Assembly: GCA_018340375.1 (NCBI GenBank)
Contig: JAFFJZ010000007.1
Span: 4,278,001-4,342,000 of the forward strand
DNA: 64,000 nt
Reading direction: 5' to 3'
DNA from: Gonatopus flavifemur
Lineage: Eukaryota > Arthropoda > Insecta > Hymenoptera > Dryinidae
In this document: piece after piece, positions 1,828-41,440 of the stretch
Position numbering within the stretch: the first letter of the stretch is position 1
Layout: each line of letters opens with the position of its first letter
The notes under the pieces: model-generated
Databases searched by the model: none
Told to the model about the DNA's origin: nothing
The model's input: the letters and a program-made list of their open reading frames with translations, nothing else
Position numbers and translations under genes: made by a program

Positions 1828-3165
1828 TACAATTCTATCATGCGGACAGATGCTTGCCTCGTACGTCACGTTTATCACACCATGCGTATCGTTCAACACG
1901 GATAACTACCGTTCTAAGCCGTTTCGATACATGAAGTGTTACGTTCATCTTCGACTTCAGTTTTTCGTCTCTTCTCTACATGCCGTACGACTTCAATTCT
2001 AGTGTTTCAAGTTTGAATCTCTTAAGGTGGCCACCTTTAACTACAACGTTTAATTGATAGACTATGAGACTCTTTTTCTTCGTGGGTGATGCGTAGATGG
2101 ATGTGTGGTAAGGTTTGAATTCTGGCCAGATTCAAAAGTTTGTGAGCCTATACTCAGATTATAATCGCGGTATCAACTCTTTGAGTTTGATTATTTGATT
2201 CTCACTTTATTTTGTGGAATAAATCGGTTTGGTTGAAATTCATTTACTTCCTTCCTTTGACCTCATTTGCATGTAATTATTGCTAAAGATCTACCTCATT
2301 ACATTGATATGAGCTGAAAATGCATTCCTTCAGAGTTTACTCCTATGAATGTTGCACAAGGCTGACCAGAATGAGCTGGTGAAAGAAAACTCAGATTGAA
2401 ATTGGAAAGGTTGCTCAGTTCCAGTGAGGCTTGAACCCGGGTTTTGCGAGTGAGGAACGTAGTCTGTATCACACCAGCGAATCTCCAATAATACCGTGAA
2501 CTAGGGTTACTTTGTAATACACGTCATGAACTCTGAATCGTTCCCTATGCGGTTGAGGTTTGTACCATTCCTTTTTCCCAGGAAAGATCAATTTCGAACA
2601 GATAAACCCTGTTGAAAAAACCAATGGATTCCAATAGATTCCGATACAACATGATTTTTTATTGGAAAATGATGTGCTTCTATCACAGCATTTATGATCA
2701 TGAAACGATGACAATTTGTTTGACAATTCATTCGCACTTACTGATGCAGTCCAATGAAAATATTTTGTAATATAGCGTTATTAAAAATAATATCCGATCG
2801 TACATAATTTGAAAGTCCTCGAATCTTATCCAGTCACCCATCAATAGTGATTCCCAATCAATCCCGATTGATGAACAAAATTTGGAAATTCTGTCATAAA
2901 GTAATTCATCAATTCTTATGGAACCCCCAATGAATACAGTTAGTATGGATGATCCACAATTGAATCAAATGTATACTATCAATGCAATTCCGATCATGAT
3001 CTCATGTTATGAATGAAGCGGATGAAATCCAATGCATTCTACTCAACTCTATTTTTGCGTTCCAGATCCACCTAATGGAATCCAATGGAATTCGTTGAAT
3101 CTTTTCAACAGAAAAAGCAAAATATATGTAAATAAACGTGGGAATACATGTCACAGAGTATCCCA
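1828..3165. other. No gene seen apart from a tRNA-like segment
   Basis: Apart from the tRNA-like stretch around 2414-2490 nothing is recognisable. A pair of oppositely placed short frames at 3002-3229 are shadows without support. Confidence 0.5.
2414..2490 (-). other. tRNA-like / pol III B-box-like segment
   Basis: On the minus strand GGTTCAAGCC (plus 2428-2437) matches the internal B box of tRNA-type promoters, and TGGTGTGATAC upstream (plus about 2467-2477) is a weak A-box match at plausible spacing. No convincing cloverleaf forms, so it is read as a tRNA-derived remnant and not a gene. Confidence 0.35.
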
Positions 3166-3200
3166 CACGGAAAAGAAATATCGTTGTCATAAAGATACTA

Positions 3201-4523
3201 CACTGAGAAAAAAATAAAAGTGCCATCAACCACCTAGTGTAGTTGAAAAATTTTTAAGTGAATCAATGAATTTTTCGTTGAAACGACTTGGAATTTGTAG
3301 AATCAACTACAACGCGTTTTTCAAACCTTCTTTCAATTGTTTCAAACCTATCACTTGATTGTATGAGCCAACGCGAATGAAATTCAAGGAATCAGAAAAA
3401 ATTCTATTCAAAATCGCAAGTAGTTGAGTCAACCTCCCAAGCAAGAAGTGAATCAACTCACGTGAACAGTTGCATGAACAAAGAATGTTTCCGTTTACAA
3501 ACTTCAGATCATTAATTGAATGAAAATAATTGATTATTCCAATTGATTCAATTGTTTGATTTAATGATACACCAGGAATTAATCAACATTATTCTCGAGT
3601 TCAGGGTATTCAGATGTCCAGTTGATTTTTTTTCTTTTCAATATATCCACAAAACATGACCACAGCATTTGCTTGAAAAGAATTTTACTTCCGTATTCAT
3701 TTTACATATTTTTCAATCTCAGGAGATATTCAATAGAAATAAATTTCAGAAGACACACTGAAGTATTTTATAACAATGTCTTTGAAATTGGTTTTTATTC
3801 CTAATGACGAGGTACAAGATACTAACAGGGTTTGGGAATGACTTGCATTCTGTGTCACGAGAATTGTATATCGTCGTATAGCTACGTCAGTTCAAGCGTG
3901 AATTTGATGAGGTTAGGTAGGCACGTAGGTAGGTAGGTTCGATTCTCGATTAGGGCTCCAAACTCTCTGTTCTGGCTGACAACCTGCTGTACTTCTTTAT
4001 CCGCCGTTGGTGGAGGAGAGAGAGTCTTCATCATCGGTAAAAGAACTCCCCTTCCATTAAATGGTTTGTGTAATCGAAATTTTTTATTTGTTTTTTCTCG
4101 TTATTTGTACATTGGACATCAAATACTATTGGATTCAATGAACTTTTTTGGAAATTTATTGCAACCGAGTGTAGAATTGATTCAACGACTCTTGAAAAAC
4201 GATTAAAAAGAAAATCTGAGTTGATTCAGAAATTTAAAAACTTGGGATCAATTGTTACGTGCATTTGACACAAAAATGTAAGATAGTATGTCAAGCACAT
4301 AATTAGTCTAAACAATTCTGTATCGTTTTATGTCAAATGTATTAAGATACTCGACGGAACCAATTTTTTATTGCTTCAACCATCCACGTAGTTGACTCAA
4401 CGGAGTCGGCCAACTTGGTGAATGATTTAATTCAACTTCCAGAGTTAGTTGAACGTATCTAACCTCCTGGCGTAGTTGAGTCAACTACATTTTTGTTGAG
4501 CTCACAAATTTTTTTTCTCAGTG
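3201..4523. mobile_element. Non-autonomous element, CACTGAGAAAAAAA ends
   Basis: The 1.32-kb element has ends CACTGAGAAAAAAA and TTTTTTTCTCAGTG, flanked by TA on each side, inserted in the GATACT(A) site of the CACGG element. GTTGACTCAACGG-type motifs link it to the small palindrome at 1626-1827. No transposase frame is present. It carries a tRNA-like segment near 3877-3947. Confidence 0.8.
3877..3947 (+). other. tRNA-like segment inside a DNA element
   Basis: TATAGCTACGTCAGTT (3877-3892) resembles an A box and GGTTCGATTCTC (3936-3947) is a good B-box match, 59 bp downstream. No stable acceptor stem was found. Similar A/B-like pairs occur in the elements at 36162-37214 and 37359-38475. Confidence 0.4.
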
Positions 4524-4638
4524 TATAATGGTTCGCTGTCAATACTATCCAAAGTGTAGGGATATCAGTATCATTGCCATGACAAAGCAGATTCTCTGAG
4601 GTACGATATAGATGGCTATGGTAATCATACATAGTCAT

Positions 4639-5092
4639 CCCTAGTAGCACAAGGATGTTTGGAATATTGTATAAATATCCATAGAATATCCAAATATGCG
4701 AAAATATTCTACGGATGTTCATACCCAGTGAACAATATGTTATCATCCGGAGCTCTTAAAGATCTCCTAAATATGTGTAAGAGGTCAGATAGAGTTCCAG
4801 AAGGTTAACATAAAGATATCAGAATGTTATCAGATGCGTCGATTCCTGAGGAAAATAAGAAATCGCCAGAATGTTATCCAAATCTTGTTATCTTTGAGAG
4901 GATTTTTTTTCTGAGATCTCAGGAAAATGATACCATTCAGACATCAATATGATAACATTGACAGAGCTTCTTCAAAAGACCTCCTAAAGAGCTCTTCCTC
5001 TCATGAGTGTTCACTGGGTAGAACATTCGAAACGTATCGACATATTCTGTGCATATTCATAGAATATTCCAAATATTCTTGTGCTATTTGGG
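4639..5092. mobile_element. Inverted-repeat element, CCCTAGTAGCACAAGG ends
   Basis: Left end CCCTAGTAGCACAAGG and right end CTTGTGCTATTTGGG are complementary with few mismatches, and AT flanks both sides. Its ~157-bp core contains GGAATATT repeats and is interrupted by the CCCAGT-family element at 4724-5018. The palindrome at 41441-41546 has the same TAGCACAA end motif. Confidence 0.75.
4724..5018. repeat. CCCAGTGAACA miniature element, nested
   Basis: Ends CCCAGTGAACA and TGTTCACTGGG, 295 bp, flanked by TA on both sides. It aligns over most of its length with the oppositely oriented copy at 35186-35472 (shared GATAACATTCTGAT-type motifs and GATGCATCGATT-like core). It is the youngest layer of this nest. 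Confidence 0.9.
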
Positions 5093-6010: not shown

Positions 6011-6304
6011 CCCTAGTAGAAATTTTGGATGGGAAAATACCAGGGCCTGACGAGGCATGCCTGGTTTCCTATTAGGTTCTCATCAGGTTTCATTACGGTT
6101 TTCCCTATTTTGCTCGATTTTAAGGAAATCTCATCCGAACCCTATTGTCCCCCTGCTTTACAACCCTATTTGAATCCTTTTAGGGAAATCAGATAAGTCC
6201 CTTTTCAAGGCCCCATAAGATTTCCCTTATTCACGGTTCCCGGATTCTAACCTGATCAGGATCTTATCAAAAATAGGGAACGCGTGATCAAATTTCTACT
6301 AGGG
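6011..6304. repeat. Miniature element, CCCTAGTAGAAATT ends
   Basis: The left end CCCTAGTAGAAATTT and right end AAATTTCTACTAGGG are perfect complements over at least 15 bp. GT flanks both sides. Length is 294 bp. A reverse-oriented partial relative lies at 24713-24950, sharing CCTGATCAGGTTAGAAT. Confidence 0.9.
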
Positions 6305-6344
6305 GTAGATTATCTATCACAATAAAAAGTGAAATTCACTTCAA

Positions 6345-20961: not shown

Positions 20962-21975
20962 GTTGGCAGCACCTATATTGAATCGTTCAGTTCCACAACT
21001 GGAATTCGATTCGGAATCAAATTCGAGTTCCAGAAACTCAGTGATTCCTGAGTGAAAGGCCCTTTGGTTGGACTAACATGAAGCATCACAACGTCCCTTC
21101 CGGCGGAGAGCCCATAACGACAAAGCCAAATGTAACATATATAGGAATTTGTCGCTGATTTGTCACCGCATTAAGAATTTTGTCGCTCCCCTAGAAGCCG
21201 GAAAAATCGAGGGTTTTCTAACGGAAGTCTTCCGCTGGAAAGCCCGAAGTGCTGAATTGGGTGGGATGGGTTCAAATTGCCATAGAAATTTGTTGCTCTT
21301 TAGTCGCTGAAATTTGACCCCAATTAGAACACTGTTGGCCCAGTCATTTTCGAGAAAAACAAGAATAACTGAAATTGGAGTGGTGGACATGTCAGAGACA
21401 AGTATAAAGGCGAGTGGCACAGGAAGAATCAATTGACCGCTGTCTAGATTAATACACATGACTATAAGATGCGAGTGGGGATGCGGAAAGAACCTTGTAA
21501 CATACTTCTGACATACTTGTATCATGGATGTAACAAACTTGTGGGGAGGGTGATTGCACGGATTAGAAGAATCGGATGCGGACTGAAATGTACACGATCG
21601 ACTATTGTCTTGATCGACTTGGACTGACTGACTCGATTATATTCTGGATTATATAGAAACGTTTTGGAGTGGATAAGGGTGGAGAGAAGTGTAAGATAAT
21701 GACGGACAAGAGATTGGATGATCAAACATGCACTGAAAGAGTTGAAATGAGTGATTCCTACATTGTGAAGGGTGGATGTGGAATTTTCACCCAGATGTGG
21801 GGGCAGCAAAAATCCCCCCTGAGGTTTAATTCCTCCAAAATATGGGAGGAATGAATCTCCCCAACGTGGGGTACTTTTGCTGCGACCAAACTTTTGAGAG
21901 AACTCCACTTACGTTTTTCTGGGTCCGTAATCAAAATTCTGACTATGTTCTTCAACTGTGTGATCGAATAGGCAT

Positions 21976-24110
21976 CCAACTAACTGAATCCGATGAATAG
22001 AGGAATATTCCAATGAAAAACCGCGAGCGACAGAGTCGCGAATGATAAAAAAAATCAAGGATTTGTTCTTCAGTCGGGACTCATCAGGGTTTCCTGGGTC
22101 TTGGATGAACTTCTCCGATATATTTTTGAGCTTTGTGATTAATTCGCCATCCAATTGAGAGGAACACAGGGGCGACAGATTATTCCATGGAAAATCACCG
22201 AGCGACAAAATCTAAAATCATTGGAAATCCGAAATCGTAGGTCAGAGGTCGATTTAAAGTAGATTTTCTGAACCTGTAATCGATTCTCTCACCCGATTCT
22301 CGGGCTCTCTGGTTCATTGGACTTCTGACAAGTAGGAACCGGCGAGCGACAGAGTATTCCATGAAAATTCACTGAACGACAAGAACGAGGATCATTGGAG
22401 GTCCAGTATCTTAGGTAAGGGGTCATTCAACGTGGGCTCTCCCGGTCTGTAATCAAATTTCCCACCATATTCTTGGGCTTTGAGGTTGATGAGGGTTCTG
22501 ATAAATGGAAACTGATGAGCGACAAAATATTCCATCGACTATGACTGAGCGACAAATTCAAGGGTGATCGGAAATCCCGGTTCCTTGAGAATATGTAACT
22601 TCCATGTGGGCTTCCTGGGTCTCTGCTGGGATTCCTCACTGTATTCTTGGGCTTTGTGGTTGATCATACTCCCTATCAGTGAGAACCGATGAGCGACAAA
22701 ATATCCCATGAAAAATCACTCAGCGACAAATCGAGAATCATTGGGAATCCAAGATCGTAGGTGAGGGGTCGATTCAACGTGGGCTTTCTGGGTCTATAAC
22801 GAAATTTCCCACCATATTTTTGGGCTTTGTGGTTAATGAGGGTTCCAATAAATGGAAACTGATGAGCGACAAAATATTCCATCGACAATGAATGGGCGAC
22901 AAATTCAAGAGTGATCGGAAATCCCGGTTCCTTGAGAATATGTAACTTCCATATGGGCTCTCTGGGTCTTTGCTGGGATTTCTCACTATATTCTTGGGCT
23001 TTGTGGTTAATCACACTCCTCATCAGTGGGAACCGATGAGTGACAAAATATTCCATGGAGAATCACCTAGCGACAAAATCGAGAATCATTGGAAATCCAA
23101 GATCGTAGGTGAGGGGTCGATTCAACGTGGGCTTTCTGGGTCTATAACGAAATTTCCCACCATATTCTTGGGCTTTGTGGTTAATGAGGGTTCCAATAAA
23201 TGGAAACTGATGAGCGACAAAATATTCCATCGACAACGAATGGGCGACAAATTCAAGAGTGATCGGAAATCCCGGTTCCTTGAAAATATGTAACTTCCAT
23301 ATGGGCTCTCTGGGTCTTTGCTGGGATTTCTCACTATATTCTTGGGCTTTGTGGTTAATCACACTCCTCATCAGTGGGAACCGATGAGTGACAAAATATT
23401 CCATGGAGAATCACCTAGCGACAAAATCGAGAATCATTGGAAATCCAAGATCGTAGGTGAGGGGTCGATTCAACGTGGGCTTTCTGGGTCTATAACGAAA
23501 TTTCCCACCATATTCTTGGGCTTTGTGGTTGATAAGGGTTCCAATAAATGGGAACTGATGAATGACAAAATATTCCATCGACTATGACTGAGCGACAAAT
23601 TCAAGGGTGATAGGAAATCCCGGTTCCTTGAGAATATGTAACTTCCATGTGGGCTTCCTGGGTCTCTGCTGGGAGTCCTCACTGTATTCTTGGGCTTTGT
23701 GGTTGATCACACTCCCTATCAGTGAGAACCGATGAGCGACAAAATATTCCATGAAAAATCACTCAGCGACAAATCGAGAATCATTGGGAATCCAAGATCG
23801 TAGGTGAGGGGTCGATTCAACGTGGGCTTTCTGGGTCTGTAATCCAATTTCCCACCATATTCTTGGGCTTCGCGGTGGATGAGGGTTCCAGTAAATGGAA
23901 ACTGACGAGCGACAAAATATTCCATCGACTATGACTGAGCGACAAATTTAAGAGTGATTGGAAATCCCGGTTCCTTGAGAATATGTAACTTCCATATGGA
24001 CTTTCTGGGTCTCTGCTGGGATTTCTCACTATATTCTTGACTTTTGTGGTTGATGAGGGTTCCAATAAATGGAAACTGTTGAGCGACATAATATTCCATG
24101 AAAAATCGTA
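21976..24110. repeat. Tandem array of ~174-bp monomers, ~348-bp higher-order period
   Basis: GAGCGACAAAATATTCCAT (and close variants) recurs about every 172-175 bp, roughly 12 times. Alternate monomers are nearly identical at ~348 bp spacing (for example 22774, 23122 and 23470), giving a two-monomer higher-order unit. Each monomer has CATATTCTTGGGCTTTGTGG and a TTCCTTGAGAATATGTAAC or GATTCAACGTGGG variant. Open frames here repeat with the same spacing and are by-products. Monomer length is close to a nucleosome repeat. Confidence 0.9.
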
Positions 24111-24261
24111 GGTGTAATGGGTGTTACAGCTAACTTTTCTCGGCACAGCTCCAACGAGAATGATGTCGTGAAACAGGGAAATTCCTCATGACGAGACGTG
24201 ATTAACACTGTGGAGATCGATCAGCTACTCCGGGATACTCCTCTATATCATCTCATATAAT

Positions 24262-24368
24262 GGGGCCTGCCGAAATAGCTGACCCGAGCGATCAGGTCAA
24301 CTTCTCAACCAATCAGGAAGTTTGAAAAGTGATCCGGATCACCTAGATCAGCTATTTCGGAAGGGTCC
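24262..24368. repeat. Palindromic miniature element, CCGAAATAGCTGA
   Basis: GGGGCCTGCCGAAATAGCTG at left pairs with CAGCTATTTCGGAAGGGTCC at right; inner GATCAGGTCAACTT is weakly complementary to AAGTGATCCGGATC. 107 bp, no coding. Confidence 0.65.
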
Positions 24369-24712
24369 AGAATAACTTCAGAGAGAGAGAGAGATGTATT
24401 GTCTTCACATATAACATAAAATACACCAATAGTAGACTAATTTGTGACATGTTTATCTAATGCATTGATGACATCGATTTCGTTGTATTTGCAGTGGATG
24501 AATTGATATACAGGGGATGCTCAATTGACGATTGATACATTGGATTTTGTACTGAGCCCCTGGATATACTTTGGAGAGAGGCTACACCAGGTGAATGATG
24601 AAGTGGGGATATTTAATTTGCAATGATTATCGATTTCTCACTTGCTGTGTTCACCTGGTTGTATGTTTCATCGACCAAAAAGCCCGAAAGGATTGTGAGA
24701 AATACTACTACT

Positions 24713-24950
24713 CTAGTGAGAATTTGATCAGGCGTTTCCTATTTGAGATAAGGTCCTGATCAGGTTAGAATTTGGAAACAGTTAATAAGGAGAATCGTAT
24801 GAGGCCCTTACAAGGGACTTGTATGATTTCACCAATGAGATTGGGAGAGGTTTGTAACGCAGGGGTAAAACAGGGCTCGGATAAGATTTCCATGAAATCG
24901 AGTGAATTGGGGAGAACCATCACGAGACTGCATCAGGTCTTACATGCATC
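24713..24950. repeat. Partial copy of the CCCTAGTAG element
   Basis: Starting CTCTAGTGAGAATTTGATCA, this stretch aligns with the reverse complement of 6011-6304 (CCTGATCAGGTTAGAAT, AAGGGACTT, AAAACAGGGCTCGG-like blocks). It breaks off where the right fold-back arm starts, so the far end is missing. Confidence 0.7.
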
Positions 24951-25259
24951 AGATGCCTACTCAATCACACAGTTGAAGAACATAGTCAGAATTTTGATTA
25001 CGGACCCAGAAAAACGTGAGTGAAGTTCTCCCAAAAGTTTGGTAGCAGCAAAAATACCCCACGTTAGGGAAATTCATTTCTCCTATATTTTGGAGGAAAT
25101 GAATCTCAGGAGGGATTTTCGCTGCCATCACATCTGGGTGAAAATTCCACATCCACCCTTCACAATGTAGGAATCACTCATTTCAACTCTTTCAGTGCAT
25201 GTTTGATCATCCAATCTCTTGTCCGTCATTATCTCACACTTCTCTCCACCCTTATCCAC

Positions 25260-25516
25260 TAGGGTGGGCCGAAAAACCAAAATTTTTGAAATCCGGGACG
25301 TAATAGTGCGGAAAAGACGGTCTGGAGGAACACAAATCGAATGAAAAGAAAATCATTCAAATCGGTCAACATTTTACCCTCGCGCATCGAGCTTGGAATT
25401 TTTCAGTTTTAAAATTCTTGGCGAATACAATATATTTTCTCGAAAAAGTTTACATTTCATTATTCAGTGTCAGAAAATGATTTTCAAGCATACAAACATA
25501 GTTAATAATGTTGGAT

Positions 25517-25565
<49 letters not shown>

Positions 25566-26540
25566 CATACATACATACATATACGCAATATAGAAGTTTT
25601 GCGTGTGCACCGTATGCGTAAGTTCTCGGATTCGTTGTGGACACGCTGATCAGAAGTGTACTGCTCAGATATTCGAATCGACTGCTTACCTCACTCACGT
25701 GACGCGAACGGCACAGAAATATACGAGCACAGCAGAGGCGTTGCATTTTTTCCAGCAAGTTTTGTTTCAGCGAGCGGTCATACTGGCGGTTGCTGATTTT
25801 CTTTAGTAAGAGATCCAGAAATTACTACCTCAACAACTTTGTTATTTTTTCACTGATATTCATGGTATTTGGAGCGTAGTAGGCCTTCATTCCATCTGAT
25901 TATATTGGGTACATTTCGTAGTTCCAAGGCTTTCCCATCATTGAAAGATGAAAGCGCCAAGGAAATACATGGGTCGGAAAGTACTTTCTTGTTCAATTTT
26001 CGGGAGTCCAAAGGACCTACCAACTTCCCAACTTCCTACGTACGAGGAAGTTTTGAGATGTTGTTTTGAAGAACGATTCAAGCTGGCTTCAGAAATCAAT
26101 TACGAAACAGTTAGTTTTTCCACTGTAGCTGGAGCAGTTGCACGAGAAATTATGGCTCAGTACGATTTAGTAACTGTCCCTACAGTTACAGAAACAAGAA
26201 TCATACAAATGATAAAATTATACCACGATTCATATATATATATATATATATTTTCATTTATCTATTTATTCATCCATACATTAATTCAACACTATTCACT
26301 ATGTTTGTATGCTTGACAATCATCTTCTGACACTGAATAATGAAATATAAACTTTTTCGAGAAAATATATTGCATTCGCCAAGAATTGTAAAACTGAAAA
26401 ATTTCAAGCTCGATGCGCGAGGGTCAAATGTTGACCGATTTGAATGATCTTTGTTTCATTCGATTTGTGTTTCTCCAGACTGTCTTTTCCGCACTATTAA
26501 GTCCCGGATTTCAAAAATTTTGGTTTTTCGGCCCACCCTA
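25260..26540 (+). mobile_element. hAT-like element in the fold-back arm
   Basis: Ends TAGGGTGGGCCGAAAAACC and GGTTTTTCGGCCCACCCTA; terminal complementarity extends ~170 bp (ATCCGGGAC, AATAGTGCGGAAAAGAC). An exact 8-bp duplication TTATCCAC lies outside both ends (25252-25259, 26541-26548). TAGGG fits the hAT end consensus. 1281 bp with a short coding remnant. Confidence 0.9.
25948..26316 (+). pseudogene. N-terminal-like fragment of a protein encoded by the hAT-like element
   Basis: About 95 residues appear coding: GSPKDLPTSQLPTYEEVLRC, then FKLASEIN, and TVTETRIIQMIKLYHDSY, before the frame runs into a (TA)n tract and low-complexity sequence. The LPT..LPTY.EVL pattern and the helical second part suggest the start of an element-encoded protein, but I cannot name the family. 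No catalytic residues of a transposase are present. The rest of the protein has been deleted between the arms. Confidence 0.45.
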
Positions 26541-27137
26541 TTATCCACTAGAAAACGTTTCTATATAATCCAGAACCCTAATCTCGAGTCAGTCAGTCCA
26601 AGTCGATCAAGGCAATAGTCGATCGTGTACATTTCAGTCCGCATCCGATTCTTCTAATCCGCGCGATCACCCTCCACACAAGTTTGTTACACCCATGATA
26701 CAAGTATGTTACAAGTGTGTTACAAGGTTGTTTCCGCATCCCCACTCGCATCTCATAGTCATGTGTATTAATCTAGGAAGCGGTCAATTGATTCTTCCTG
26801 TGCCACTCGCCTTTATACTTGTCTCTGACATGTCCACCACTCCAATTTCAGTTATTCTTGTTTTTTTCGAAAATGACTGGGCCAACAGTGTTCTAATTGG
26901 GGTCAGATTTCAGCGACTGAATAGCGACAAATTTCTATGGCAATTTGAACCTATCCCACCCAATTCAGCACTTTGGGCTTTCCAGTGGAAGACTTCCGTT
27001 AGAAAACCCTAGATTTTTCCGGTTTCTAGGGGAGCGACAAAATTCTTAATGCGGTAACAAATTAGCAACAAATTCCTATACATGTTACAGTCGGCTTTGT
27101 CGTTATGGGTTTTGCACTTGAAGGGACGTAGCATCAC

Positions 27138-28411
27138 GTGGTACATGATGAAAGAATGGACCTCTAGCCAAAGCTGCAAATCACGTCATTTCATCAAGAT
27201 TTCGCGACAAATGACCTTCAAATGGATGAAGTGGTGCGCAACTATTGAGAATCATGTGCAGTGTTACGTCGAAATCACTTGAAAAACAATATCGAAAATG
27301 ATGTAAGAAATTACATTGTAAATCATGTCATTTGTTGCATCATTGTTGTGAGGATTTTTTGACAAATGAATGGGGCTTTGGGCAACTCTTGAGTGAAAAA
27401 GAAGGTACGGCATTAGTAAGAAAGCTTCCCTCCAACGAGGAAGCAAAACGGTGTGTTATTTATTGAGGAAAAGTACTGTTGCAAGTTCGGTACGCACTCT
27501 TCATAAGAACTTCCGTCGATGGAAACCTGAGGGAATGACATCCTCATTGTTTTTGTAATATTGAGAATCCGGAGTCCAGCAAAGGCCTCGATCGGAAACA
27601 ATTCTTGGTGGTTTTTTCCTTAATTTGGGAAAAAAAATATCATCAGCCAAGAGTAAGGCCAAAGTACATCTCAAAACCGATCCCAGCTAAGATTCACTTG
27701 ACTTGAGGAGAAAGGGTCATTGATCCTTATCAAGCGTTTTAGATAAAATTGCAGTGTAGAATTGACGTCCCAGGTTGCTCTTGATTTTTGTAACAATTAT
27801 GAGGCATTCAAAGTGAAAACAGAAATACAGATGTCCTCAACAACTTTCCATTGACAGTCTCGGAGGAAACACAATTATCGGACAGTCACGCTAGAGTACC
27901 GCTAAATATGGATCCCGTGTGATTTTGGCTCAACTTAAGTGATTGTTCATCAAGGGCACAGAAGAACTACGAGTCAGAATCGATGCCTAGGACTGTTTTT
28001 GACTGTGTAAGAATTCTGAGACATTCACATTAAGCTGAACTTGGAATCAATTGAATCTTCAGAGAGATATAGAAAGATCCTGAAGAAATCAAAAATTTTT
28101 ATCAGCAAAGTTTATAGAGATTCAAAGTGAATTGGAAAGATTTCGAATGCAGCACTATGACAAGTCTCTAACTTCCTCTGAATTACTCTGAAATTGCACT
28201 GTATTTCTCAGAAAAATGTTGAAAAACATGGCGAGATTCAGCATGATTTCAGAGAGATTCAGTGTTATTTCAGAGTGTGTCATAGAGATTTTTTTTTACC
28301 AACGCCAGGTTTCTTGGAATATTGCGTTTTTAGAATATATCATTCACGTGTGGAGCTAGGGAGAGAATAAATCTCATTTGAATACCATATGCGTGAACTG
28401 TTCTAACTGTA
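27138..28411. other. No gene seen
   Basis: Nothing supported. TTCAGAGAGATT-type words recur in 28050-28290 and may be a decayed repeat. Confidence 0.5.
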
Positions 28412-35472: not shown

Positions 35473-36161
35473 TTGCCGCCCTTTGACGGCCTGCCGCCCC
35501 TGCGCCATGGCGTCGTTAGCGCAGGCCATAGTTCCTGTAGAAAATGTGTCCTACTGTCACTCTTAGCTTGCGTTCCAGAGATTCCTCTATATTCATCAAT
35601 TCATGCAAACAGTATAAGAGTGATTTTATTCTGTCAATTCGACTCAAAGAGAATTTTGGATAATGCTGTCTGTTGATGTTTTTTACTTTCCAATTATCGA
35701 TGTGACAAGAACATATTGTAAGTCTATCAAATGTAACATTGCGATTGTTTATGTTACGAATGGAAGAGGTTAATGAATGTGATTTTTCACATCTCAAAGG
35801 ATTCTAAAATTATAACAAAATAAGAAAAGATCAAATCATTGAATTGATGAAATTGAACAAAATTGGATGTAACATGAACCTGGTGAAATATGAGGAGGAG
35901 AAAACCGGGCAGATTTTTCAAAACACATGAGAGAATTCTGTTATAAATTGAAACACATAATCTCATGCTGATATCAATTACCCCAGTAAAAATGGGAGTA
36001 TAGGACTGATCACTGATATCGGATATAGGACTGAATTTGAAAACCATGAGAATGATAAACGTGATGTGATAAGATTACCGCATGCGAGAGGGTTATGTCC
36101 ATTCTTACTAATAAAAAACAGGCACAGAGTAATTAATGAATCAAGCTCCATGCATAACGTA
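35473..36161. other. No gene seen
   Basis: Continuation of the GCCGCC-rich repeat to about 35520, then AT-rich sequence with no supported feature. Confidence 0.45.
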
Positions 36162-37214
36162 CACTGTAAAAAAAAACTGGAAATTTACTGCGCAACTGGA
36201 CTGGAAATTTCCAGTGCTAGTACTGGGATATCGATATTCCAGTACATGTACAGATATTTTGTTGGTACGTTACTGAAAATTTACCAAGCATAACTGGAAA
36301 TTCAGTCCTTGTACTGGAATTTTCAAGTTTGGTATTGTGTACTGAAATTTTGCCATGATTTTGCGAAAATTTTGCTGGCTCGTACTACAATTTCACAGTT
36401 TTTGTGCAACAGAAAAAAGTATCCCCTCAATGAGGACTTGTAAAAAATTTCGAATTTAGAGAAAAAAATTAATCGTGGGTATACTGGAAGTCTACAGGTT
36501 TTGAACTGCAATGTTCGGGTTGTGTGATGGACTTTTCCAGTTTCTATGCAACGAAATTTTCCAGTTATGCTGGAATTTAATCACTGTCGCACTGAAATAT
36601 TCCACTTCTGTTGGACTTCGTCATTTCTGGTGGGAAAAATTTCAAGTCTTTATATTAAAAATTTCCTGATTGAGATTTTGAATAATATTTGTAATTGTAG
36701 CAAATAAAATTGATATATGAGGTTTTTCAAAGATTTATTTTTTTGTGTATTCTAGATATGAAGCATATGTAGTAACCCAAGCTGACCTTCCAATATGTCG
36801 CGCTATAGCTCGTCGGTTAGGTCTTGGGTTTCAGTTGGTAGGCAGATAGAAAAATGTAGGTTCAAATCCCGTTAGGTAGACATGACTTTCTGTCCATCCA
36901 CATGAACGATCCAGTTTCTCAGTCATCTTGAAACACAAGGACCGTGCAAAATCACTTTGTGTGAGCAATTTTTTTTCAATTTTCATGAATATTTCCAGCA
37001 TTAATTTTCCAGTACATGTCCTGGAAAAGTCCAGTTCGTGTACTGAAAAATTCCAGTACTGGGGCTCAGCAAATTTCCAGTTCTGATGCTGAAATTCCAT
37101 AACATTTGTACTGAATTTTTGCAGTACAAATGTGCTGAAATTTTCCGGTACATGCACAGGTTAATAACTTCCAGTACATTTACTGGAATTTTCCGGTGAA
37201 CCTTTTTTACAGTG
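36162..37214 (+). mobile_element. CACTGTAAAAAA element with tRNA-like segment, copy 1
   Basis: Ends CACTGTAAAAAAAAACTGG and CCTTTTTTACAGTG, flanked by TA on both sides; 1053 bp. The outer parts are dense in CCAGTACA / TGTACTGG words in both orientations. The middle carries a tRNA-like segment. No transposase. Confidence 0.85.
36800..36875 (+). other. tRNA-like segment (A/B-box-like) in copy 1
   Basis: TATAGCTCGTCGGTTAGG (36804-36821) matches an A box and GGTTCAAATCC (36859-36869) a B box, 55 bp apart, a spacing compatible with pol III promoters. No acceptor stem closes it, so it is tRNA-derived or mimicking sequence and not a tRNA gene. Confidence 0.5.
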
Positions 37215-37358
37215 TACATGCACTGTGAGTAGTTCTTAAGGTGATACCCCAAGATGTCAGTGGCAACAGCATTTACCCTCACAGTATCGATAAAATTACA
37301 TGCACTGTAAAAAGGGTTACATTATTAGTTGACATATATCGATTTGGGATCTGACCTA

Positions 37359-38475
37359 CACTGTAAAAAAATTTCACCGGAAAATTCCAGTACATGTACT
37401 GGAAGCAATTAACCTGTACATGTACCGGAAAATTTTAGCACATTTGTACTGCAAAAATTCAGTGCAAACGTTATGGAATTTCAGCATCAAAACTGGAAAT
37501 TTTCTGAACCTCAGTACTGGAATTTTTCAGTACACGAACTGGATTTTTCCAGGACATGTACGGGAAAATTAATGCTGAAAATATCCGTGGAAATTGAAGA
37601 AAAATTGCTCGCGCAAAGTGATTTTGCAGGGTCCTTGTGTTTCAAGATGATTGAGGAACTTGATCATTCGTTTGGATGGACAGAAACTCATGTCTACCTA
37701 ACGGGATTTGAACCTACACTTTTCTACCTGTCTATCAACTGAAACCTAAGACATAACCGATGAGCTATAGCGCGACATGTTGGAAGGCTAGCTTGGGTCA
37801 CATATGCTTCATATCTAGAATACACAAGAGAATAAGTCTTCGAAAAACCTCATATATCAATTTTATTTGCTACAATTACGATTATTATTCAAAATCTCAA
37901 GCAGGAAATTTTTATTATAAAGACTTGAAATTTTTCCTGCCAGAAATGACGAAGTCCAATAGGAGTGAAAAATTTCAGTGCAACAGTAATTAAATTCTAG
38001 CATAACTAGAAAATTCCGTTGCATAGCGACTGGAAAATTCCATCACACGACCTGAAAATTGCAGTTCAAAACCTGTATAATTCAATTGCATAGCAACTGG
38101 AAAATTCCATCACAAAACCTGAGAATTGCAGTTGAAAACCTGTATAATTCTAGTATATCAACGATTAGGTTTTTTTTTCTAAATTCGAAATTTTTCGCAA
38201 GTCCTTTTTGAGGGGATACTTTGTTCTGGTCCACAAGAACCATAAAATTGTAGTACAAGCCAGTAAAATTTTCGTGAAATCATGGCAAAATTTCAGTACA
38301 AAATCCCAAACTTGAAAATTCCAGTACAAGGACTGAATTTTCGGTTATGCTTGGTAAATTTTCAGTACCGTACCAAAAAAATCTTTGTACGTGTACTGGA
38401 ATATCCATATTCCAGTACTAGCACTGAAAATTTCCAGCCCAGTTGCACAGTAAATTTCCAGTTTTTTTTACAGTG
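37359..38475 (-). mobile_element. CACTGTAAAAAA element with tRNA-like segment, copy 2 (inverted)
   Basis: Ends CACTGTAAAAAAATTTCACC and CCAGTTTTTTTTACAGTG; left flank TA, right flank TG. It is the reverse complement of copy 1 over nearly all its length, so with copy 1 it makes a ~2.3-kb imperfect palindrome with a 144-bp spacer. 1117 bp. Confidence 0.85.
37700..37775 (-). other. tRNA-like segment in copy 2
   Basis: On the minus strand TATAGCTCATCGGTTAT (plus 37753-37769) and GGTTCAAATCC (plus 37704-37714) repeat the A/B-box-like pair of copy 1 with the boxes conserved while the surroundings differ at several bases. Confidence 0.5.
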
Positions 38476-38578
38476 TGATGTAGCATAACATTGGAGATGA
38501 TCTATTGTCTTAATGTATAATTTAAAACATTAATGGTCAACTGATGATCCATTATTCATAAATATGATGATGTATCTA

Positions 38579-39937
38579 CAGGGTGTCCCATTTTAATCCT
38601 TAAATGCAAATATCTCAAAAACATGCATCTTAAACCAAAAGTACTTCATACCAAAGTTGTTATACAGAGAGGGGGCCACAAAACTACGATATCAGTTTCA
38701 TCATAGATGGCGTTATGATCGATTAAAATGGGGTCAACATCATTTTTTTAAACGGGAACCCCCACTTTTGATCGCATATCTTGATTCTACGCAAAAAACT
38801 GAGTAACTTTTGCTTGAAACGTTTTTCTAAATTTCTGAAGATGGCGCCACAATCGATGAAAAATGAAGTCTATGAAACAATATGCAGATATCTTGAGGAA
38901 TGCATCCAAGAGCCGAAATATCTCATTCGAATGTTGTTGTTAAGAGAGGGGACGACACAATGGCGATATCAGTTCCATAGTAGATGGCGCTGTGGTCGGT
39001 GAAAAGAGATCAACTTCAATTTTTCAAATGGAAACTCTTACTTTTTATCGCATATCATGATTCTACGCGAAAAAATGAGGAAGTTTTGTTTGAAAAATTT
39101 TTCCTAAATTCTTAAAGATGGAAAAGGTGGGAAATGAGGTTGATGAGATAGTTCTACTGCCTTATGTGTAAAGCAACGCTCAACTCTTGAAGGTTTTGTT
39201 TTCATCTTCCGAGGATTGGGGTGTGACAAATTCCCATATTACTCCCACCCCCTCCTCCTCCACTCATCAGTAGGCCGTCGGCATTAGCGTTACCCAATGA
39301 GCACCCCGAGGAGGTTGCGCGATCGGGTTTGTTGAGCGTTGCTTCACACATAATGCAGTAGAACTTTCTCATCAACCTCATTTTCCACCGTTTCCATCTT
39401 CAAGAATTTAGGAAAAATGTTTCAAACAAAAATTCCTCATTTTTTCGCGTAGAATCATAATATGCGATAAAAAGTAGGGGTTTTCAATTGAAAAATTGAA
39501 GTTGACCTCATTTTTACCGACCACAGCGCCATCTACCATGGAACTGATATCGTCATTGTGTCGTCCCCTCTTTCAACAACAGCATTCGAATGAGATATTT
39601 CGGCTCTTGAATGCATTCCTCAAGATATCCGCATATTGTTTCATAGTCTTTATTTTTCATCGATTGTGGCGCCATCTTCAGAAATTTAGAAAAACGTTTC
39701 AAGCAAAAGTTACTCAGTTTTTTGCGTAGAATCAAGATATGCAATAAAAAGTGGGGGTTCCCGTTTAAAAAAATGATGTTGACCCCATTTTAATCGATCA
39801 TAACGCCATCTATGATGAAACTGATATCGTAGTTTTGTGGCCCCCTCTTTGTATAACAACTTGGGTATGAAGTACTTTTGGTTTGAGATGCATGTTTTTG
39901 AGATATTTGCATTTAAAGATTAAAATGGGACACCCTG
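38579..39937. mobile_element. Fold-back element, CAGGGTGTCCCATTTTAATC ends
   Basis: Ends CAGGGTGTCCCATTTTAATC and GATTAAAATGGGACACCCTG, TA on both sides. Arms of about 600 bp are nearly complementary (GATGGCGCCACAATCGATG / CATCGATTGTGGCGCCATC), leaving a ~130-bp GC-rich loop near 39200-39330. 1359 bp. No transposase. Confidence 0.9.
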
Positions 39938-41440
39938 TATATATGATATAATGTAATCTTTCTACAGTGTGGTATGTATGATGTAAAATTACAGATCCAT
40001 ATAAAAAAAAATTACTTCCACTATCATTATGTAAAATTACCTTCGCCGACTGTAAATTTACATGGCCTGCATGGGTAAATTATGTTGCAACCTGCATGTT
40101 TGTGTGAAATTACACCTACATGTTTGTGTGGAATGACACCTACCTACGTGATGCAAAATTACACAGACAGAAAAAAATCATGTTCCCATTGAAGTGATGT
40201 TTGACATCATGTTTGGGGAACATTCCTCCAACGGATATCGAACCCAGTCATAGACCTACCTATATACTATTCTCAACTTACCTAATCTATGCCCTAACAA
40301 TCTCAGCAACGCCGAAAACGCAGATGATTTGTTCAAAAAAGGCTTACATATGTCTGTACTCGTTCCGACTATGTACATTCATAGGATGTAATAGGAATTT
40401 GACTTTGCAAAAATGAAAGCGAAATAAAAACTACACCGTATATGTATATTCACCATTTGGGAAGGGTAATGAGCATCTACTCTGGTAGCATTGTAATTTC
40501 ACCGATGTGAGAGGTAAAATGAACACTACACTGTATATATGAATTTACCGTTCGGGGGAGGTAATCAGCATTTACCCTTACACTGTTAGGTGATTGCGAA
40601 TTACCATTATATTTTGGTGATATCACTTGTATATGATAGCAGTAGATTTACATCTATTTTTCACAGTGTGGATGGTACAAAACTCAAGGAGTGAGTGATT
40701 TTTTTCATCTGTTTGATGCACCAAATACTATTGGGCCGCCAGGAAAACACAATATTCAAAAACATTTCCACTTGAGGTGGTTTTGGTGACCGATTCTGGA
40801 GTGAAATTTAATCATATTCTCATTGGAACGGAATTCACAATTCGAATCGAAAAAAAATTTACTTTGTTCGGATTCGAAGTTGCATCCTTGGGATCCGAGA
40901 GACGACTCTGACGCCACTTTTCTATGGAAACATTAACTTCAGCGCTTTTCAGTGTACTGCAATTTAGAAAATGACATTTTTGTTTAATTGTCCTGTTTTT
41001 TTATCCAGATGAGTAGTAACTTGAATTATTCAGGAACATATGAGAAAAACTACAATCCAGGTGTATAAAACAGTTGAAATATCAGTTCTAACAATATGAT
41101 TCCATGTACAGAAATTTTTATATAGATCTATGTACCGATTACTCAAGAGTAGTTATTTTGAATTTATGATTCCAAAATTGAATGATTCAAAAACATTCAA
41201 GATTCATTTCTCCATATAAGGGCGGGTAAGTCCATACAGATTGGTAGGTGAGTGGGGCTGGAGTCTTCCCTTGGATCTCAAAGATGCAAACTCGAATCCG
41301 AACAAAATGAATTCCTTCCAATTAGAATTATTGACTTTTTGCCCTTTTGTTTCAAGAAAGAAGTTTTTCCTCAGGCGGTAAGGGAAAATTTTCTTCCGAA
41401 ATTTGGAATTCGGGCTCCTTGCTGTATTATATATATGCTA

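What the first reader, a model, noticed from the sequence alone, without database searches (positions are those of the whole stretch)
21090..27129. Six-kilobase fold-back element carrying a satellite-like array with an 8-bp target duplication
Two ~885-bp inverted arms, an identical 8-mer AGCATCAC just outside both ends, and a loop made largely of ~174-bp monomers with a two-monomer (~348-bp) higher-order period. This links a mobile fold-back structure to nucleosome-length tandem repeats, a route by which satellites could be spread. No transposase is inside, so it needs one in trans.
Basis: partly seen in the sequence, partly recalled or inferred. Interest (0 to 1): 0.75.

Follow-up and report, generated by a model that had tools for sequence, protein, structure and literature searches.

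The report
Foldback transposon with satellite-like inverted arms
This is one copy of a foldback transposon family, with no transposase gene seen in it, whose long inverted ends are partly built of satellite-like 174-bp repeats; it is a new member of a known kind (like Tetris of Drosophila virilis), and a second element of the same design but unlike sequence turned up in the same genome.

Summary
(1) The target duplication is 9 bp, not 8: 6 of 9 two-ended copies match at 7-9 of 9 bases at that offset; 72 mismatched end pairs reach at most 6. (2) The 174/348-bp array is not cargo in a loop. It is the inner part of the inverted arms: the 9 other two-armed copies carry it on both sides in opposite orientation. 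The window copy lost its right-hand array, and a hAT-like insertion (25260-26540) splits its right arm. (3) Copies at three loci with unlike flanks share one core-to-monomer junction, so the element spread as a unit. No transposase was seen in the cores read. Layout and duplication size fit non-autonomous Mutator/foldback elements, closest in design to Tetris. The motif CGACAA is enriched near the ends and in the monomers, a candidate transposase-binding site. A foldback of unlike sequence at C88 has a perfect 9-bp duplication and 177/356-bp dimeric arm repeats; the motif test fails there. The genome search answered once and then no more, so the transposase source and free satellite arrays stay untested.

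The parts
21082..21090 (+). left target-site duplication AGCATCACA (9 bp)
   Evidence: 8 of 9 with the right flank; 9-bp offset shared by 6 of 9 two-ended copies
21091..21976 (+). left arm (outer inverted repeat, begins ACGTCCCTTCC)
   Evidence: Inverted match to the right arm; 50 match rows in the own genome, window included, 71-95% identity in the rows other than the query itself
21916..24107 (+). left-arm array: 13 monomer matches (some partial) of ~174 bp, inner ones as 348-bp A/B dimers
   Evidence: nhmmer, identity matrix of the 11 longer ones, TRF
24108..24931 (+). core type A (824 bp; longer relatives have about 1.5 kb)
   Evidence: blastn among cores; no open frame above 112 aa in the L014, L015 and L009 cores and none of 110 aa or more lying wholly inside the window core; left junction shared with L013 and L010
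24932..25259 (-). inner piece of right arm; starts in a diverged first monomer, right array missing
   Evidence: nhmmer partial hit 25012-24932; junction compared with L013
25260..26540 (.). nested hAT-like insertion, ends TAGGGTGGGCCGAAAAACC, 309-bp inverted ends (90%), 8-bp duplication TTATCCAC at 25252-25259 and 26541-26548
   Evidence: class by end sequence and 8-bp duplication only (recalled), no Pfam family in its ORF 25945-26316
26549..27129 (-). outer piece of right arm, ends GAAGGGACGT
27130..27138 (+). right target-site duplication AGCATCACG (9 bp, last base differs)

Best explanation
A non-autonomous, probably Mutator-type foldback transposon. Each arm is a terminal inverted repeat made of an outer part (~0.9 kb) and an inner array of ~174-bp monomers; a short core without a transposase gene separates the arms. 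A transposase made elsewhere would bind motifs near the ends and in the monomers (candidate CGACAA), cut the element out and paste it in with a 9-bp duplication. The two arms of one copy are kept alike by exchange between them. Unequal exchange in 348-bp steps changes array length. Shown: family of dispersed copies, 9-bp duplication, arrays on both arms, shared core junction at three loci, arm pairing in the tree. Inferred: the transposase, its binding site, Mutator ancestry, and the exchange steps.
For: 9-bp duplication in 6 of 9 copies against 0 of 72 cross-pairs at 7 or more. Ten two-armed copies including the window; opposed arrays on the two arms in the 9 others. In an arm tree holding both arms of 8 of the 10 copies, left and right arm of one copy are sisters in 7 of 8 (5 with full support, L013 and L014 without); the window pair is unresolved. 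Window, L013 and L010 share one core junction while their 200-bp flanks share no 11-mer; L014 has further core there. CGACAA: 4.4 per 250-bp end (16 ends of 8 copies), 1.33 per monomer (141 monomers); product score of the best shared hexamer 4.0-8.0, null 99th percentile 3.13, maximum 4.17 in 1600 shuffles. Duplications of 8-11 bp are given for Mutator-like elements (PMC6446971, passages).
Against: No transposase gene with these ends was found. 3 of 9 copies (L010, L012, L014) lack the duplication; L010 has an inverted copy of its flank, the other two are unexplained. The left end of the C343 copy is degraded and I placed its boundary by hand; without it the count is 5 of 8. By plain identity the window's left arm and the two C343 arms are closer to another copy than to their partner (93.3 against 94.2; 90.6 against 91.1 and 92.2). 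The motif score of the window's right end (4.0) lies below the null maximum; a first score did not separate from shuffles (1.33, null maximum 1.38); the most conserved 8-mer of the monomers is TATTCCAT, not the motif (1.74 against 1.61 and, for the other motif copy, 1.30 over six bases); the motif test fails in the second foldback. The 16 ends are related, so they are not independent tests. Mutator ancestry rests on duplication size and arm design; P-type Galileo shows that such arms occur in other superfamilies.
Confidence: 0.8

Rival explanations
1. The same foldback design but moved by a transposase of another superfamily (P/Galileo-like or hAT-like).
For: Galileo is foldback-like yet belongs to the P superfamily (abstracts of PMC3688188, and PMC3573991). 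A hAT-like element is nested in this very copy.
Against: At 8-bp offset the own pairs match 0-4 of 8, at 7-bp 1-3 of 7; among offsets 7-11 only 9 gives matches of 7 or more.
Confidence: 0.12
2. A pre-existing satellite was captured between the arms of a foldback and carried as cargo.
For: The window copy alone looks so: one array between two arms.
Against: The 9 other two-armed copies carry monomers in opposite orientation on the two sides (in L014 the left array is short); the first monomer lies partly inside the arm; where the window copy has no right array, L013 has further core and a full array.
Confidence: 0.05
3. A segmental inversion or inverted duplication, not a transposon.
For: At C8 the inverted repeat runs about 1.57 kb past both ends.
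Against: All ten two-armed copies have the ACGTCCC terminus at one end at least, with differing 30-bp flanks from copy to copy, and 6 of 9 tested have the 9-bp duplication. The C8 case can be read as later fold-back copying.
Confidence: 0.02

Closest known systems
Tetris, foldback transposon of Drosophila virilis (PMC4079207; parts 1-2 of 6 and passages read)
   Same: Outer flanking domain up to 866 bp (here 886), then a variable number of tandem repeats inside the inverted repeats, non-coding middle of variable make-up, 8-10-bp duplications, transposase not found, Mutator assignment by inference; a short stretch shared by outer domain and monomers.
   Different: Repeat is ~220 bp there, 174 bp with a 348-bp dimer here. 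Repeats outside the element were shown there, not tested here. Sequence relation not tested (no Tetris sequence at hand).
Galileo, P superfamily, Drosophila (PMC3688188 and PMC3573991; abstracts read)
   Same: Long internally repetitive inverted ends; [quoted passage not shown]
   Different: P-type transposase; the 9-bp duplication here points elsewhere (the shorter duplication of Galileo is recalled, not from a call).
Tm1, Mutator/foldback family of root-knot nematodes (PMC3169594; abstract and one section read)
   Same: 9-bp duplications, composite inverted ends with variable numbers of a repeated motif; some members code a transposase like the Phantom subclass of Mutator.
   Different: Repeated motif is mostly 14 bp, not 174 bp; no higher-order period mentioned in what I read.
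Rehavkus (PMC6446971, passages); its link to FB-NOF is recalled
   Same: 9-bp duplication; repeats next to a terminal inverted repeat.
   Different: Minisatellite before the 3' end only, as described; coding element with a PHD-finger transposase; not found here.

Membership tests
Foldback-type elements (structural class) | Long inverted arms with internal tandem repeats, short middle | tested here: met
Foldback-type elements (structural class) | Dispersed copies bounded by target duplications | tested here: met
   6 of 9 two-ended copies
Mutator superfamily (MULE) | 8-11-bp target duplication | tested here: met
   9 bp; range from PMC6446971 passages
Mutator superfamily (MULE) | Mutator-type DDE transposase in a relative with the same ends | not tested
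   The genome search unanswered. Pfam on 7 ORFs of fetched stretches gave no Mutator domain, but those ORFs lie in other insertions or outside the element.
Rehavkus | PHD-finger transposase and minisatellite beside one end | not tested
   no coding copy was found to test
Tetris | Sequence similarity to Tetris inverted repeats | not testable with these tools
   no Drosophila collection at hand; only the architecture was compared
hAT superfamily | 8-bp target duplication (recalled) | tested here: not met
   own pairs 0-4 of 8 at that offset
P superfamily (Galileo) | 7-8-bp target duplication (recalled) | tested here: not met
   own pairs 1-3 of 7 and 0-4 of 8
Satellite DNA | Long arrays independent of the element | not tested
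   monomer search of the genome did not complete

The most novel reading that the evidence does not exclude
Foldback transposons of this genome repeatedly build their arms from nucleosome-length repeats (174 and 177-178 bp) set in two-monomer dimers (348 and 356 bp), in two families whose monomers share no detectable sequence. Repeat length and dimer would then be selected, for example as spaced transposase-binding platforms or as nucleosome-phasing arms, and the elements would be factories of new satellites.
Probability: 0.12. Interest if true: 0.65.

Novelty: new member of a known kind. Interest (0 to 1): 0.4.

Why it matters
It extends the Tetris-type link between foldback transposons and satellite-like repeats to another element; the text searches listed no paper that I recognised as describing it, but a sequence cannot be looked up that way, so it may be held elsewhere under a name I do not know. 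It offers a testable reason for the repeats (binding sites that also occur near the ends). Two foldbacks of unlike sequence with nearly the same monomer length and a dimer period in one genome make convergence a question that can be counted. The pairing of arms and one fold-back-copied flank (C8) show how such elements may rearrange chromosomes.

Tried and rejected
Partner gene: I looked for coding relatives among four hits that match only part of the outer arm (C395, C88:3.39 Mb, C57, C323:35.0 Mb; L031-L034). They gave relics, a 707-aa open frame in L031 that looks like a LINE-type reverse transcriptase (by eye, not searched) and the second foldback in L032; no transposase with these ends was seen. 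Four further places with hits (C176, C328, C359, C381:2.5 Mb) were never fetched. Seven ORFs from L014, L018, L019, L021 and L023 were put to Pfam: DUF7869 in one L014 ORF, three HTH-type families in the L023 ORF, nothing in the other five.

Open frame in the arm: the reverse strand of the outer arm is open for 157 and 147 codons in the two window arms and 162 in L018, but only 56-141 codons in the other arms where I could recognise it, and it was not recognised in the two L014 arms; no Pfam match up to E 1. Read as a chance frame.

Shared-motif test: a first score (minimum of the two counts) did not separate from shuffles (1.33; null maximum 1.38); the product score did. In the second foldback the test is negative (1.75; null means 1.79 and 1.76).

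Two foldbacks as distant kin: local alignment of the two dimers scores 22 (plus) and 18 (minus) against null means 21.6 and 20.9, maxima 28 and 26, and the monomer profile of the second does not hit the window; kinship of the monomers not supported.

Rows dropped: C346 (L016) from the duplication count because its right end lost the outermost bases; the L015 right arm and both L016 arms from the arm tree because interrupted; single-arm hits were not tested for duplications. One search timed out without output and was redone in simpler form. Papers looked into but not used: passages of PMC13359780, PMC12910113, PMC12628747.
Full report
What is there. The window lies in a 636-Mb, 402-contig genome (C370:4278001-4342000). 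Its open frames include mariner-type and LINE-type fragments; the species was not identified. The reported structure exists: two inverted arms bound 21091-27129, with a tandem array of ~174-bp monomers and a 348-bp period between them. A- and B-type monomers alternate; like types are 90-100% alike, unlike types 67-72%.

Right arm and nested element. The right arm is in two pieces because a 1281-bp element sits at 25260-26540. Its two ends are identical over the 31 bases printed and it is flanked by an exact 8-bp repeat TTATCCAC, which fits a hAT-type insertion (recalled features). It entered after the foldback was in place.

A family, not a single structure. A genome search with the left arm gave 50 match rows; 40 of 204 first-look candidates were scored, so counts are lower bounds. 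I fetched 20 stretches over most of these rows and six later; hits on C176, C328, C359 and C381:2.5 Mb were not fetched. Ten two-armed copies, the window's included, were recognised: C370 (window), C352, C8, C88:0.125 Mb, C186, C323:36.5 Mb, C397, C1:0.51 Mb, C346:1.13 Mb and C343. I take the C343 copy as one element split by about 43 kb of inserted DNA in its right array: its two arms are sisters in the tree (98/97) and its flanks match 8 of 9, though its left end is degraded and I placed that boundary by hand. Other hits are single arms or relics, many at 71-78% identity, so the family is old.

Target duplication. Nine copies were compared, last bases before the left end against first bases after the right end. 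The match is 9/9 in L011 and L013, 8/9 in the window, L015 and L018/L019, 7/9 in L009, and 1-3 of 9 in L010, L012 and L014. Offsets 7, 8, 10 and 11 give at most 6 matches (L014, 6 of 10). The 72 cross-pairs average 2.4 of 9 and never exceed 6.

The array belongs to the arms. In the 9 other two-armed copies the monomers run inward from each arm in opposite orientation. Along the arm the first monomers are diverged and the inner ones form uniform dimers: same-arm identity of rank 3 with rank 5 averages 82% (18 arms) and of rank 4 with rank 6 91% (9 arms), against 63-71% for neighbouring ranks. The window copy keeps the left array and lost the right one: next to its core the sequence jumps into a diverged first monomer, where L013 has further core and a full array.

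Spread as a unit. Two core types occur: type A (window, L010, L013, L014, L015, L018, L020), up to about 1.5 kb, and type B of about 465 bp (L009, L011, L012); L016 has almost none. Window, L013 and L010 have the shorter form of core A, joined to the same place in a monomer; L014 has further core there; the 200-bp flanks of the three share no 11-mer. The same three group in the arm tree (99/95). The simplest reading is one progenitor with a deletion copied to three places; that the long form is the older one is my assumption. In L010 and L015 the core is inverted relative to the others, as expected from recombination between arms. The L014, L015 and L009 cores hold no open frame above 112 aa.

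Arms kept in step. Within-copy arm identity (gaps not counted) is 93.3-100% in seven copies and 90.6% for L018/L019; between copies it averages 92.9% (145 pairs, 89.0-95.9). The left arm's partner is closer than any other copy's arm by 1.5-4.1 points in L009, L010, L011, L012 and L014 and by 0.1 in L013; in the window and in L018/L019 an arm of another copy is closer. In the tree, both arms of a copy are sisters in 7 of 8 copies tested (5 starred), the window pair being unresolved. Gene conversion or repair between folded-back arms would give this; so would equalising of arms when a copy moves. The C8 copy goes further: about 1.57 kb of flank is present inverted on both sides, at 98.6-98.8% over the whole inverted stretch, and there is no duplication, best read as fold-back copying after insertion.

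A candidate binding motif. CGACAA occurs 4.4 times per 250-bp end (16 ends of 8 copies), mostly at about 28 (plus) and 59, 70, 101, 211, 222 (minus) from the end, and 1.33 times per monomer; its core CGACA is 30 bp apart in 54 of the 95 spacings listed. The product score of the best shared hexamer is 4.0-8.0, against a null 99th percentile of 3.13 and maximum of 4.17 in 1600 first-order shuffles; the best hexamer is CGACAA at 13 ends and its overlap GACAAA at 3. The closely related strings GCGACA and CGACAAA are at chance level in the rest of the window and absent from the core, where less than one is expected. Against it: an earlier score did not separate, another 8-mer (TATTCCAT) is the most conserved in the monomers, the ends are related to each other, and the second foldback shows no such signal. 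In Galileo the transposase binds about 70 bp from the end and again in the tandem repeats (abstract of PMC3688188); the Tetris paper proposes the same reason for its repeats (passage). Here this is inference: no protein is known.

A second foldback of the same design. L032 (C88:3380900-3389900), next to a relic of this family, holds an element at L032:2567-6454 with ends ATGAAGTGGAAGC and a perfect 9-bp duplication AACTCTGAG. Its arms (97% over 942 nt and 99% over 191 nt) consist of about 190 bp of outer sequence and monomers of 177-178 bp in 356-bp dimers, five on the left and nine on the right by profile hits over 80 bits, the outermost ones diverged. Monomers of the two families do not align above chance. 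One copy is known; other copies were not sought because the search did not complete. Nearly the same length and a dimer in two unlike sequences could be chance.

Comparison with the known. Tetris matches closely in layout: outer domain up to 866 bp, tandem repeats in the inverted arms, non-coding middle, 8-10-bp duplications, presumed Mutator kinship (PMC4079207, parts 1-2 and passages). The repeat is about 220 bp there. Tm1 and Rehavkus share the 9-bp duplication and repeats at the ends. I therefore file this as a new member of the foldback kind, probably Mutator superfamily, with the superfamily unproven because no transposase could be sought genome-wide; the genome search answered once and then not again.

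Verdict. Ordinary in kind, well supported in structure, with two points of interest: the motif shared by ends and monomers, and the second foldback with nearly the same repeat length and a dimer.

Noticed in passing
L032:2567-6454 (C88:3380900-3389900): Second foldback of unlike sequence, perfect 9-bp duplication AACTCTGAG, arms of 177-178-bp monomers in 356-bp dimers; sits inside a further inverted-repeat structure L032:2043-6908.
   Followed up: partly
C8:146090-154714 (L029, L010, L030): The foldback copy sits in a larger palindrome: about 1.57 kb of flank inverted on both sides, 98.6-98.8%, no target duplication; looks like fold-back copying.
   Followed up: partly
L018:6140 to L019:7158 (C343): About 43 kb inserted into the right array of one copy; inserted DNA starts TAGTGCTTCC and ends GGAAGCACTA beside a repeated CGTTGAA (by eye), hAT-like by recall; the middle was not fetched.
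   Followed up: no
L021:1426-6472: Arm interrupted by DNA beginning CACAGTGG with a 729-aa open frame (2819-5005) without Pfam match; Transib-like by recall.
   Followed up: partly
L014:561-5296: Left arm interrupted by an element with about 872-bp inverted ends (95.9%) and open frames, one with a DUF7869 match.
   Followed up: partly
window 36161-38476 and 38573-39943: Two further large inverted-repeat structures (arms 730 bp at 90% and 613 bp at 95%); the second begins TATCTACAGGGTGTCCCA.
   Followed up: partly
window 24692-24918 and 6097-6323: A 228-bp part of the core has a 77.6% copy elsewhere in the window on the other strand, so the core contains or shares a dispersed repeat.
   Followed up: no
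window 21785-21900: Small imperfect hairpin inside the arm (fold z-score -2.4), interrupted or missing in several relatives; possibly an old small insertion.
   Followed up: partly
window 21163-21636 (-) and 26569-27012 (+): Open frames of 157 and 147 codons in the two outer arms; shorter or broken in most other arms, no Pfam match.
   Followed up: yes
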